NCBI GenBank assembly: GCA_009841115.1
Contig: VXML01000080.1
Span: 124,001-188,000, forward strand
Direction: 5' to 3'
Source of the DNA: Gemmatimonadota bacterium
Lineage (GTDB): Bacteria; Latescibacterota; UBA2968; UBA8231
DNA: 64,000 bases
Below, piece after piece: positions 951-5,131 of this stretch. The notes under the pieces were generated by a model, which saw only the letters and a list, made by a program, of their open reading frames with translations, had not been told where the DNA came from and did no database searches. How positions within the stretch are numbered: position 1 is the stretch's first letter; each line of letters starts with the position of its first letter. Made by a program: the position numbers and the translations under genes.

Positions 951-1742
951 GTGCAACTTGAACTGAAAAAGGTTGGGGTTCTGCTGCGCGACCAGGATTT
1001 GGACTATCCGGTCGCCGAGGTGCGCGACTTGTTTGCCGCGCATGGGATTGAGGTGCGCTTTATCGGGGGGGATGAGCACCCGGGCGACTTGGACTTAGTC
1101 GTCGCGCTTGGTGGTGACGGCACAGTGCTCCGCGCCTTTGCGCGCTTCCCGCAGTGGCCGGTGCTGGCGATCAATTTCGGCACTGTTGGCTTTTTGACCG
1201 CTGGGGATCGCACGGATTTGGCGCGCATCGTCCAGCTCTTAGTCGATGGCCAGTACTTCGTCAGCGAGCGCTTGGTGCTCTCTTGCCGCCATCCCTGCGG
1301 CGAGAGTTTGGTCTTCAACGAGGTGACCTTGCGGGCGCACCACAAAATGCTCTCTACGGACGTCTTCGTTGACGATGCTAAGATCCGCACCATTCGCGGC
1401 GACGGCGTGGTGGTTGGTACGCCTACGGGCAGCACCGGGCTGTTGCTGTCGATGGGCGCGCCGCTGGTCATGCCGGAGGTGCGCTGCATGTTGCTCGACG
1501 GTATCAACGAATACAACTTCACGTCGCGGACCTTGATTTTGCCAGCCGAGAAACGGGTGCGGCTGCGCGTCAGCCCCGAGACCGTGGACAGCCAGGTGGC
1601 GCTCATTGCCGATGGTCACGAGATATGCAGCTTAGCTCCCGAGCAGGAGGTGTACGTCGGTCAAGCTGCGCACACGGCGCGGTTGATATATCTCGACGAT
1701 AATTATTTTTTTCACAACTTGTCTGAGAAACTTTCTTGGTAG
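951..1742 (+). CDS. nadK: NAD kinase
   Basis: VALGGDGTVLRAF (GGDGT motif), NFGTVGFLT and GTPTGSTG motifs; GTG start. Confidence 0.93.
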   Translation: MQLELKKVGVLLRDQDLDYPVAEVRDLFAAHGIEVRFIGGDEHPGDLDLVVALGGDGTVLRAFARFPQWPVLAINFGTVGFLTAGDRTDLARIVQLLVDGQYFVSERLVLSCRHPCGESLVFNEVTLRAHHKMLSTDVFVDDAKIRTIRGDGVVVGTPTGSTGLLLSMGAPLVMPEVRCMLLDGINEYNFTSRTLILPAEKRVRLRVSPETVDSQVALIADGHEICSLAPEQEVYVGQAAHTARLIYLDDNYFFHNLSEKLSW

Positions 1743-1747
1743 AGGAG
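1720..1747. repeat. Junction repeat A copy 1 (tgtctgagaaactttcttggtagaggag, nadK 3' end)
   Basis: 28-nt exact match to 4386-4413. Confidence 0.95.
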
Positions 1748-1820
1748 TGTTCCGCACAGAGAGTAGCGCACATTGGCGGTTAATTGAAGCGAATTCAGTA
1801 CCAATTTTAAGTACAACGGC

Positions 1821-2621
1821 ATGGAGAAAAAAATGACCTATACCGATTCTGAGCAGCATGAAGCCAAGGAAACCGGGGCAAAGGCGTGGGACCGGATCAT
1901 GGGCGCATCGTTGGCGCTTCCTGGAGCGAAAGTTGATCGCGGCAGCTTTCTTTATTCTCAATTAATTAATTATTGCGATGAGACACAGACTAAGAAAGCC
2001 ATTGAAGGTAGGCCTGCTAACGCTGGAATACCATCTAAGCTGATTGATAGATTGGCAGATGCCTGCATTAAGTCGCATGTTCGAAAGGCTTCTGCGATTT
2101 CATTTGGGACTGGATTGCCAGGTGGTTGGGCGGTGGCCGCCACAATTCCCGCCGACCTAGCTCAATTCTATTGGCATGCGATAGTCTTATCCCAGAAGTT
2201 GGCGTACTTATATGGTTGGCCAGATTTATTGAAGGAAGACGAGGCTGACGAAGAGACTAAAGCGAAGATTACACTGCTCATCGGAGCGATGATGGGTGCT
2301 CAGGGGGCTAACAAAGTAATAAGCGGGGTGGCTGAGCGATTTGCCCGCGAAATTGCGCGGCGTCTTCCGAGGCAGGCGCTTACTAGGACTGCGTATTATC
2401 CGCTAATCAAACAGATTGGCAAATGGATTGGATTTAATGTTACCAAAAGTACCTTTGCGCGTAGCGTGTCAAAAGTCGTGCCAATTGTTGGCGGATTTGT
2501 TTCTGCCGGCTTGACTGCGCTAATGATGAAGCCTATGGCCAAGCGACTGAAGAATCACCTAAGAGAGTTGAGATTAGCATATTCTGATGATCATGAGTTA
2601 GACCTCATAGATGAAGTCTGA
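1821..2621 (+). CDS. EcsC-family-like protein
   Basis: FGTGLPGGWAVAATIPADLAQFYWHAIVLSQKLAYLYGWPDL segment characteristic of EcsC-domain proteins. Confidence 0.75.
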   Translation: MEKKMTYTDSEQHEAKETGAKAWDRIMGASLALPGAKVDRGSFLYSQLINYCDETQTKKAIEGRPANAGIPSKLIDRLADACIKSHVRKASAISFGTGLPGGWAVAATIPADLAQFYWHAIVLSQKLAYLYGWPDLLKEDEADEETKAKITLLIGAMMGAQGANKVISGVAERFAREIARRLPRQALTRTAYYPLIKQIGKWIGFNVTKSTFARSVSKVVPIVGGFVSAGLTALMMKPMAKRLKNHLRELRLAYSDDHELDLIDEV

Positions 2622-2639
2622 CCTGACTAAGGTCGGACT

Positions 2640-3896
2640 TTGGAAGTTGACAGGAGTCAAAAACCCATGGAAGACGAGATCAAGCAGGTCGACAAAAAAG
2701 CTAATAGTAATGGACAAGCGAAAAATCCACGCATTATCATCGACGCAAGCTACATTCATGGTATGCAGAAGGATGGTGCACCGCTTCGAACGATATCTGA
2801 ACAAGGCGGGCGCATCGTTATAACCGATACTTTAGCTTATGAGCGTCTCACATCCTGTCCCAACCAATGGCCAGCAACGAAGAGTAGGCTTGTAGCGTGC
2901 CGAGACGCTATAGAGGTCTGGGAACATGTCTCCAAGATGTATAAGGTCGAGCTTAAAAAGAATCGCCCATACGGCGATCCGTTGCATCATGACAAGACTG
3001 AAGGTCTGCGCTCTGAATTGGCAAATGATCTACAGTATGAGCCTGATGATTTGGAAGCAATAATTGAGAAGGTACGTCAAGAACGCGAAGGTTCTAATAT
3101 CCCTGAACTATTTCGGAACTTCGCAAAACTTAATAAGGAGTTTAAGGAGGAGGTCACAGCAAAGATCAAAGATAAGATGCCTCATGATAAAGAGGTCGTG
3201 CAAACTTGTTACGATGCAATCAACGACCCCCAAAGTATTCGGTCGATGATAGATATAATTCGGTCCGTGACAAATAATGATATGGATGTTTTACTAAATT
3301 CCAAGGACGTAAATGAAGAGTGGGTTATATGGCATTATGGTAAATCGCTTCTTACAATATTCTGCGATTGTGGCCGTCGAGGCGAAAATGCGTTTAGAAG
3401 AATATCGGAGAAATATGAGAAACGTTTATACAATATAATACATGACTTAGACTACTTGACTTTATTGGCGTTCGCAGATGCGATCGCATCTCGCGAAACA
3501 AAAGGAGAACAATCTTACTATCGGCGGTGGATGTTTGGAGATGCCTCAAAACCATTAATAAGATCTTATGAAAAAGAACAAATTATGCATACGTTCAGGC
3601 AAATGTCCAAAGTCGCGATTTATGTAACCGAACAACTAGATGGATATACGTGTGCGCTGGACCCTTGGAGCCTAGGGGTGCTAAATATACGGGATTCAGG
3701 GACGCTACCTACGAGCGTGTTTATATCGTATGAGACCGAACGGCACTTTGAATTCTTTCGCGGCCCAACATGGAAGCACACTGTAGAGATTCTAACCGGC
3801 TATTCGGCTGCAGACCTTCGGGCATTTGGCGGGATCGTGTTTGTAGATCCAAGGACGCTGGAAGTCCTATTTGAGCCTTCTGAACAACATGTCTAG
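2640..3896 (+). CDS. Hypothetical protein, possible PIN-like N-terminus
   Basis: Long ORF; N-terminal RIIIDASYIHGM...GGRIVITDTLAYERL and central DYLTLLAFADAIAS resemble acidic PIN-like motifs (weak). Start could be ATG 2667. Confidence 0.6.
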   Translation: MEVDRSQKPMEDEIKQVDKKANSNGQAKNPRIIIDASYIHGMQKDGAPLRTISEQGGRIVITDTLAYERLTSCPNQWPATKSRLVACRDAIEVWEHVSKMYKVELKKNRPYGDPLHHDKTEGLRSELANDLQYEPDDLEAIIEKVRQEREGSNIPELFRNFAKLNKEFKEEVTAKIKDKMPHDKEVVQTCYDAINDPQSIRSMIDIIRSVTNNDMDVLLNSKDVNEEWVIWHYGKSLLTIFCDCGRRGENAFRRISEKYEKRLYNIIHDLDYLTLLAFADAIASRETKGEQSYYRRWMFGDASKPLIRSYEKEQIMHTFRQMSKVAIYVTEQLDGYTCALDPWSLGVLNIRDSGTLPTSVFISYETERHFEFFRGPTWKHTVEILTGYSAADLRAFGGIVFVDPRTLEVLFEPSEQHV

Positions 3897-4451: not shown

Positions 4452-4487
4452 GAGGTTCTCCACCATAAGGACGCACTCAGGGTGTAG
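4419..4487 (+). pseudogene. Truncated duplicate of the start of the downstream epimerase gene (MRVAVIGADRP then unrelated sequence)
   Basis: MRVAVIGADRPEVLHHKDALRV*; first 11 codons identical to the gene at 5099. Confidence 0.85.
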
Positions 4488-4490
4488 GCT

Positions 4491-4745
4491 TTGCCTGTTA
4501 TTTTAAGAATACGAGGTTATCGGTTTTGGTTTTATCAGGCAGACCTTGATGAACCGCCCCATGTTCATGTAGGGAAACAAGGAAAGGAAGCGAAGTATTG
4601 GGTTGATCCAATTGGATTGGCGCAAGTTAGGCGATTTCGTCCCCATGAGTTAAACGAAATCAAAGGCATTTTAATGGCCCATCGTGAAGATATCATGGAC
4701 GCATGGCTAAAGGAGCAGGCGAAACGTGGCAACAGTCAAAGTTAG
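4491..4745 (+). CDS. DUF4160 domain-containing protein
   Basis: RIRGYRFWFYQADLDEPPHVHVGKQGKEAKYWVDP...LNEIKGILMAHREDIMDAWLKEQ: typical DUF4160. Confidence 0.85.
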   Translation: MPVILRIRGYRFWFYQADLDEPPHVHVGKQGKEAKYWVDPIGLAQVRRFRPHELNEIKGILMAHREDIMDAWLKEQAKRGNSQS

Positions 4746-5058
4746 AATACAAACGCAAAATGGAGAACGAGCACCCATTGTGCCCGTCGTCATTCCAAAC
4801 ATTGAGGATGTCGTGATGTTTGCGAAAAAGCTCCATGACGAAGGACAGCTATGGATCGGTGAGGCATTTGGCTGGCCGGCAGAATACAGTCCCGAAACGT
4901 CTGATCCGCCACTAGACTCAAAAATGACCTTTACTCCCGCAGATTTCTGTATTGGTGAGAGTGGCATTTGGTTTTATTCCCTTATGTGGGAGAATGGTAA
5001 AGAAGAAGAGCCGGTTGCTTTTTTGGATGATAGAAATATCACTGAAACAGTGTCATGA
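4726..5058 (+). CDS. Small hypothetical protein partnered with DUF4160
   Basis: ORF overlaps upstream DUF4160 gene by 20 nt; no recognised family. Confidence 0.65.
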   Translation: MATVKVRIQTQNGERAPIVPVVIPNIEDVVMFAKKLHDEGQLWIGEAFGWPAEYSPETSDPPLDSKMTFTPADFCIGESGIWFYSLMWENGKEEEPVAFLDDRNITETVS

Positions 5059-5075
5059 TTCTGAATAGTACGATG

Positions 5076-5131
5076 ACTTTCTTGGTAGAAGAGATGCTAT
5101 GCGCGTGGCGGTAATCGGCGCGGATCGCCCT
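5076..5131. repeat. Junction repeat B copy 2 (56 nt, one mismatch to 4396-4451)
   Basis: Direct alignment: acttt cttggtagaa gagatgctatgcgcgtggcggtaatcggcgcggatcgccct. Confidence 0.95.

What the first reader, a model, noticed from the sequence alone, without database searches (positions are those of the whole stretch)
1720..5131. One gene junction invaded twice, each insert bracketed by a long target-like duplication
The nadK 3' end (tgtctgagaaactttcttggtagaggag, 1720-1747) recurs exactly at 4386-4413. The next 56 nt of the ancestral junction (4396-4451), including the start codon and first 11 codons of the epimerase gene, recur at 5076-5131 with one mismatch. The simplest reading is an ancestral nadK-epimerase junction that received about 2.6 kb (1748-4385) and about 0.6 kb (4452-5075) of foreign DNA in separate events, leaving 28-bp and 56-bp duplications. 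These are longer and more variable than usual transposase target duplications, no transposase or integrase is visible, and both cargos look like nuclease or toxin-antitoxin type accessory genes. This suggests an unusual integration route, such as staggered-break capture or an in-trans recombinase.
Basis: partly seen in the sequence, partly recalled or inferred. Interest (0 to 1): 0.85.

Follow-up and report, generated by a model that had tools for sequence, protein, structure and literature searches.

The report
Defence-gene hotspot bracketed by gene-end duplications
In sponge-associated Latescibacterota bacteria, toxin-antitoxin and restriction-type genes keep inserting between the same two housekeeping genes, each time leaving an extra copy of the gene boundary, most likely because the incoming DNA carried that boundary with it and recombined by homology rather than by a transposase.

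Summary
A 28-bp copy of the nadK 3' end brackets a 2.6-kb insert and a 56-bp copy of the nadK/epimerase junction brackets a 0.6-kb insert. Empty sites exist: 6 of 11 sampled genomes of the genus, and the sampled other genera of the family, keep the two genes about 5-25 bp apart. Five genomes plus one further contig carry cassettes here, with different cargo: DhiTA-like, HicAB, DUF433, a nuclease operon, and a GmrSD/methyltransferase set. All but one keep extra junction copies between or beside cassettes. Two complete chromosomes in the survey show three more insertions bracketed by 55-196 bp gene-end duplications, so the pattern is not unique and not an assembly artefact. Breakpoints and repeat lengths vary, and no recombinase, terminal repeats or common core was found. 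In two cases the extra gene end is a foreign allele, and the small cassette lies in a 99.3%-identical tract (background 93%) that ends inside the epimerase gene. I favour homology-anchored capture, followed by homologous shuffling. The class resembles 'insertion with long target duplication', described for restriction-modification genes. New here are the recurrent hotspot, broader cargo, and evidence that some duplications are imported.

The parts
951..1742 (+). nadK, NAD kinase; host gene on the left of the hotspot. About the last 370 bp are more diverged from the close relative G001 than the rest of the gene
   Evidence: Pfam NAD_kinase and NAD_kinase_C; identity profiles
1720..1747 (+). Junction copy 1 (28 bp: nadK 3' end, stop codon, AGAGGAG)
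1748..4385 (+). Cassette 1, 2.64 kb, 45.5% GC, three co-directional genes; homologous cassettes at the same site in G006 and G010
1821..2621 (+). 266-aa protein matching PADLOC candidate defence family PDC-S30
   Evidence: PADLOC E 3.8e-96; no Pfam match
2640..3896 (+). 418-aa protein, possibly a PIN-like nuclease (weak lead only); some homologues carry an N-terminal HicB domain
   Evidence: 123 homologues; P0013 HicB fusion; AF2 pLDDT 80.8 with only weak PIN hits and none at E<=0.001
3889..4362 (+). 157-aa PD-(D/E)XK endonuclease-like protein, below the Pfam cut-off
   Evidence: PF11645 E 6.8e-5
4386..4451 (+). Junction copy 2 (66 bp: nadK 3' end, RBS, epimerase start and first codons)
   Evidence: 100% identical to the G001 copy
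4419..4487 (+). Truncated epimerase leader ORF MRVAVIGADRPEVLHHKDALRV*, ending 3 nt before the listed TTG start of the toxin gene
4452..5075 (+). Cassette 2, 0.62 kb, 45.4% GC; essentially the same in G001, partly in G010, 84% identical elsewhere in G030
4491..4745 (+). DUF4160 / DhiT-like toxin
   Evidence: PF13711 E 2.2e-16; NCBIfam DhiT E 4e-4, below cut-off
4726..5058 (+). 110-aa probable antitoxin in the DhiA position, overlapping the toxin gene; no family match
   Evidence: toxin-first overlapping order as in dhiTA
5076..5131 (+). Junction copy 3 (56 bp), restoring the RBS and start of the epimerase gene; TAGAAGAG as in the empty site of G009
5099..5719 (+). Epimerase/NAD-binding gene on the right of the hotspot; first about 190 bp belong to the cassette 2 recombination tract; 1-nt deletion near 5571
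   Evidence: Pfam

Best explanation
The nadK-epimerase junction is a hotspot where short accessory cassettes (TA, nuclease, restriction) are captured by homology carried on the incoming DNA, not by a transposase or integrase. A fragment from a related strain that already has a cassette at this locus brings part of nadK and/or of the junction with the start of the epimerase gene. RecA-type recombination pairs that host-derived part with the recipient; the other end is joined illegitimately. This happens either by circularisation followed by a single crossover, or by homology-facilitated illegitimate recombination of a linear piece. The product is recipient boundary, cassette, donor boundary, that is, a duplicated gene boundary whose length equals the homology carried. 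Both genes stay intact and the site is regenerated. Further cassettes can then enter, and homologous recombination between copies exchanges or deletes cassettes. Shown: empty sites, multiple cassettes, variable breakpoints, foreign gene-end alleles in two events, a recombination tract around cassette 2. Inferred: the donor molecule, the order of events, and that transformation was the route. Also inferred: the duplicated start region helps translate the cassette, because truncated epimerase leader ORFs stop next to the first cassette gene.
For: Empty sites in 6 genus members and the sampled other genera of the family. Different cargos at the same junction in G000, G001, G002, G006, G010 and L243. 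In G002 a 156-bp nadK end, only 83-86% identical to every sampled allele including its own nadK, sits inside the array fused to hicB. At G003:1575449 the copies are about 72% identical: the distal copy matches G006, while the copy completing the gene is divergent although the gene body is about 92% identical. Junction, cassette 2 and the first 190 bp of the epimerase: 6 mismatches in 890 nt between G000 and G001 against 93.1% background, then 83.8%. Other long-duplication insertions of 78, about 55 and about 196 bp. Leader ORFs ending 0-12 nt from the first cassette gene in three arrays and an in-frame fusion in a fourth. comEC in most and dprA in all genus genomes searched. Precedent: partial target duplications of 109-950 bp from single crossover of truncated circular donors in E. 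coli (PMC3240628).
Against: For this genome's own two insertions the copies are 28/28 and 55/56 identical, so donor and recipient copies cannot be told apart from the repeats alone. Homology of 28-56 bp is short for RecA; longer arms may have existed on the donor but are not proven for cassette 1. The cassette 2 tract shows later exchange between lineages, not the first insertion event. No donor strain with the predicted intermediate was found, and one targeted search was negative. The fall in nadK identity towards its end is moderate and could be an unrelated tract. Most other insertions in the survey lack duplications.
Confidence: 0.6

Rival explanations
1. Capture at a staggered double-strand break: long 3' or 5' ends of the broken junction are filled in after a foreign fragment is ligated, giving true target duplications of variable length.
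For: Repeat copies are identical or nearly so in G000, and at G003:1479655 (98.7%) and G006:5772411 (97.6%); variable length fits.
Against: In G002 and G003:1575449 the extra gene end is a diverged allele and so not copied from the recipient. Cassette 2 sits in a tract of homologous recombination.
Confidence: 0.15
2. Replication-based template switching (microhomology-mediated) or a tandem duplication of the junction followed by insertion between the copies.
For: Explains duplications of any length in direct orientation and short microhomology joints; partial deletions such as the hicB scar in G006 and deletions in the distal copy of case 3 show that the region rearranges.
Against: Does not predict foreign gene-end alleles or restriction of such duplications to cassette edges; no tandem duplication without an insert was seen at this site.
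Confidence: 0.13
3. Site-specific integration of non-autonomous cassettes by a recombinase supplied in trans, the repeats being att sites.
For: Same site used repeatedly; several cassettes (dhiTA, hicAB) share the right edge GAACAGCACGATG|ACTTTC.
Against: At least four different right edges and several left edges at this site; no common core with the other duplicated sites; copies of 28-196 bp; no integrase in the inserts. The shared edge reads as an inherited hicB tail. The cassette 2 genes occur in G030 without the edges or a long repeat.
Confidence: 0.08
4. Assembly or binning artefact.
For: The genome is a multi-contig MAG with 7.6% contamination.
Against: The same kind of arrangement occurs in independent MAGs and in a single-contig chromosome (G006), and cassette 2 recurs in G001.
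Confidence: 0.02

Closest known systems
Insertion with long target duplication (Nobusato et al. 2000; Furuta et al. 2010; cited in PMC1643837 and PMC3031569)
   Same: Insertion recognised against an empty site in a related genome, bracketed by long, variable duplications of the target, no linked transposase, cargo of selfish or defence type. L243 even carries a GmrSD/methyltransferase set at this site.
   Different: Described for restriction-modification genes, first in Helicobacter pylori; here mostly TA and nuclease cassettes in a candidate phylum, repeatedly at one junction, with signs that some duplications are imported donor alleles.
Homology-facilitated illegitimate recombination and single crossover of truncated circular donors (PMC3240628)
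   Same: Homology at one side, illegitimate joint at the other; single crossovers gave partial target-gene duplications of 109-950 bp in E. coli.
   Different: Seen in laboratory experiments; here inferred from natural genomes, with apparent duplications of 28-196 bp.
T6SS effector-immunity arrays in Vibrio cholerae (PMC5361080)
   Same: Successive insertions at one locus, proposed to use HFIR, leaving displaced gene pieces and an integron-like array without an integrase.
   Different: There the displaced pieces are orphan immunity genes; here they are ends of housekeeping genes, and cargo is TA, nuclease or restriction genes.
Integron gene cassettes (general knowledge)
   Same: Array of accessory cassettes separated by repeats at one locus.
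   Different: No integrase in the inserts, no fixed crossover point; repeats are host coding sequence.
DhiTA toxin-antitoxin (PMC8198452)
   Same: DUF4160 toxin gene first, overlapping the antitoxin gene.
   Different: DhiT match is below the NCBIfam cut-off and the antitoxin matches no family.

Membership tests
Insertion with long target duplication | Empty site in close relatives | tested here: met
   G003, G004, G005, G007, G008, G009
Insertion with long target duplication | Long and variable direct repeats of the target at both edges | tested here: met
   28, 56, 78, about 55, about 196 bp
Insertion with long target duplication | Restriction-modification cargo | tested here: inconclusive
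   Met in L243 (GmrSD and N6/N4 MTase); the window's cargo is TA and nuclease-like
Homology-facilitated illegitimate recombination | Homologous tract from the donor on one side of the insert | tested here: met
   Cassette 2 with about 190 bp of epimerase; it cannot be dated to the first insertion
Homology-facilitated illegitimate recombination | Donor allele of the host gene inside the insert | tested here: met
   G002 and G003:1575449; not resolvable for the window's own copies
Homology-facilitated illegitimate recombination | RecA dependence, uptake of linear DNA | not testable with these tools
   comEC and dprA only show potential
Transposon with target-site duplication | Fixed short duplication, terminal inverted repeats, transposase | tested here: not met
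   Variable long copies; no inverted repeats at the insert ends; no transposase in the window's inserts
Site-specific recombination element or integron | Common core at a fixed crossover point; integrase | tested here: not met
   Different edges, no shared core, no integrase in the inserts; an integrase elsewhere in the genome was not tested
DhiTA TA system | DUF4160 toxin with DhiT identity and a DUF2442 antitoxin | tested here: inconclusive
   DUF4160 above cut-off, DhiT below cut-off, antitoxin unmatched

The most novel reading that the evidence does not exclude
Host gene boundaries act as self-renewing docking sites: each cassette travels with a copy of the boundary, often including the ribosome-binding site and start codon that translate it, so that arrays of defence cassettes grow, shuffle and spread between sponge symbionts by ordinary homologous recombination, an integron-like economy without an integrase.
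Probability: 0.3. Interest if true: 0.72.

Novelty: new variant of a known kind. Interest (0 to 1): 0.5.

Why it matters
How small defence and TA modules without recombinases settle in chromosomes is poorly explained. This locus offers a natural series (empty, one cassette, two cassettes, different cargos) with readable joints, and points to the incoming DNA's own host homology as the answer. It also gives a simple search signature, duplicated gene ends around AT-rich inserts, for finding cassette hotspots in other uncultured lineages.

Tried and rejected
The second 400-kb block gave almost no collinear sequence. Search for a donor of the foreign gene end at G003:1575449 found none in 60 relatives. 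Cassette 2 in another family (G030) lacks long flanking repeats. Duplication calls at G000 and G007 near 53-57 kb and 143-150 kb lie in regions dense in internal repeats, probably genes, and were discarded. The 21-bp repeat around a Fic-like gene is too weak to count. PDB sequence and fold searches did not identify the 418-aa protein; weak PIN-domain hits only. Furuta 2010 is not held. Nobusato 2000 was not looked up and is known here through papers that cite it.

Full report
What is there. The window lies in a 6.16-Mb metagenome-assembled genome. Its closest named relatives are Latescibacterota/Gemmatimonadota MAGs; that several come from marine sponges is my reading of the isolate names and general knowledge. 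The reported repeats are exact: 28 nt (1720-1747 and 4386-4413) and 56 nt with one mismatch (4396-4451 and 5076-5131). The layout is nadK, junction copy, cassette 1, junction copy, cassette 2, junction copy, epimerase. Both cassettes are AT-rich (45% against 58% GC).

Empty sites. NAD kinase and the epimerase were searched in 60 relatives. In G003, G004, G005, G007, G008 and G009 the two genes are separated by about ten bases and the junction is present once. From the coordinates, other genera of the family (for example G012, G014, G015, G017-G025) also keep the two genes about 5-25 bp apart. Insertion, not deletion, is therefore the simple reading.

A hotspot, not two accidents. G001 has only cassette 2 with the same 56-bp bracket. 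G006, a single-contig chromosome, has a homologue of cassette 1 without the 266-aa gene, a junction copy, then a HicA/HicB pair. G002 has a DUF433 gene with a further gene, an epimerase-start copy, a 156-bp nadK end and a hicB gene. G010 has a different set of genes ahead of a related nuclease gene that is interrupted at a contig end by a transposase-like ORF, then a truncated cassette 2, with no junction copy left between them. A further contig, L243, binned as Nitrospinota but with nadK 99% identical in amino acids, carries a GmrSD-type endonuclease, a DNA methylase and a third ORF at the same place, with a decayed junction copy in the middle fused in frame to the methylase. Occupied and empty genomes are interspersed at about 88-93% nadK identity.

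Other sites. Collinear stretches of G000, G003, G006 and G007 were aligned; 74 insertion entries were listed, some of them the same site seen in several genomes. Besides nadK, three insertions carry clear gene-end duplications: G003:1479655 (78 bp, one mismatch, a 579-aa ORF), G003:1575449 (about 55 bp, 72% identical, a 400-aa ORF) and G006:5772411 (about 196 bp, the distal copy carrying two deletions; a Schlafen/AlbA_2 protein). Most other insertions, including several with restriction-like genes, have none. Randomly placed controls of the same lengths score below 22.1 bits in 95% of cases; these three score 121, 33 and 129. A few random placements scored as high, up to 325 bits; I attribute these to repeat-rich genes of the kind listed.

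Mechanism. Three results bear on it. First, in G002 the internal nadK end is equally distant from every sampled allele, including G002's own (83-86%), and is fused directly to hicB; it must have come in from a donor in which hicB already followed nadK. Second, at G003:1575449 the distal copy matches the G006 gene end, while the copy that now completes the gene is divergent, although the gene body is about 92% identical; the cassette brought its own gene end. Third, between G000 and G001 the junction, cassette 2 and about 190 bp of epimerase differ at 6 of 890 positions, against 6.9% in the neighbourhood (binomial P about 3e-20), then identity falls to 84%. That is a tract of homologous recombination with its edge in the host gene. 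These results argue against a simple target duplication for at least two events and show that cassettes move with host flanks. A single crossover of a circularised donor fragment, or homology-facilitated illegitimate recombination, gives exactly this product; a published E. coli test aimed at the latter gave mostly partial target-gene duplications of 109-950 bp by the former (PMC3240628). The genus has comEC and dprA, so uptake is possible but not shown. For the two insertions in the window itself the step is inferred, because the copies are too alike to assign.

Consequence. The duplicated boundary keeps both housekeeping genes intact where they lie only about ten bases apart. Where a copy with the epimerase start sits in front of a cassette, its truncated reading frame stops 3 nt (G000, G001) or 12 nt (G006) before, or overlapping (G002), the first cassette gene, and runs in frame into the methylase in L243. 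Translational coupling is a plausible benefit, untested.

Cargo. Cassette 1: PDC-S30 candidate defence protein, a 418-aa protein whose homologues can carry a HicB domain and whose model gives only weak PIN-domain matches, and a PD-(D/E)XK-like protein. Cassette 2: a DUF4160 toxin of DhiT type with an overlapping partner gene.

Place among known things. The class resembles insertion with long target duplication, described for restriction-modification genes (PMC1643837, PMC3031569). The V. cholerae T6SS immunity arrays are the nearest proposed mechanism (PMC5361080). New here are the repeatedly used junction, TA and defence cargo beyond restriction-modification, and evidence that some of the duplicated gene ends are imported.

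Noticed in passing
window 5561-5580: The epimerase gene has a 1-nt deletion relative to its relatives, shifting its last part out of frame (possible pseudogene or sequencing error).
   Followed up: partly
L243 (JAPPHK010000232.1): Contig binned as Nitrospinota clearly belongs to this Latescibacterota genus; probable misbinning.
   Followed up: partly
P0013 and similar: Homologues of the 418-aa cassette 1 protein carry an N-terminal HicB-like antitoxin domain closely resembling the HicB of the neighbouring cassettes, suggesting fusion by recombination within the same cassette pool.
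   Followed up: partly
L068 about 5615-5660 (G006): Scar of a deleted hicB gene (its start joined to its end) just before the middle junction copy.
   Followed up: partly
L072/L073 (G010): The cassette 1 nuclease gene is interrupted by an IS5-like transposase ORF at a contig end.
   Followed up: no
window 30231-32165 (G000:C93:154231-156165): A 1.9-kb insertion relative to G003 carrying a Schlafen/AlbA_2-like protein (by eye), without flanking duplication.
   Followed up: no
L107 4492-5052 (G030): Cassette 2 genes at 84% DNA identity in another family, between a dipeptidase-like gene and an aminotransferase-like gene, without long repeats.
   Followed up: partly
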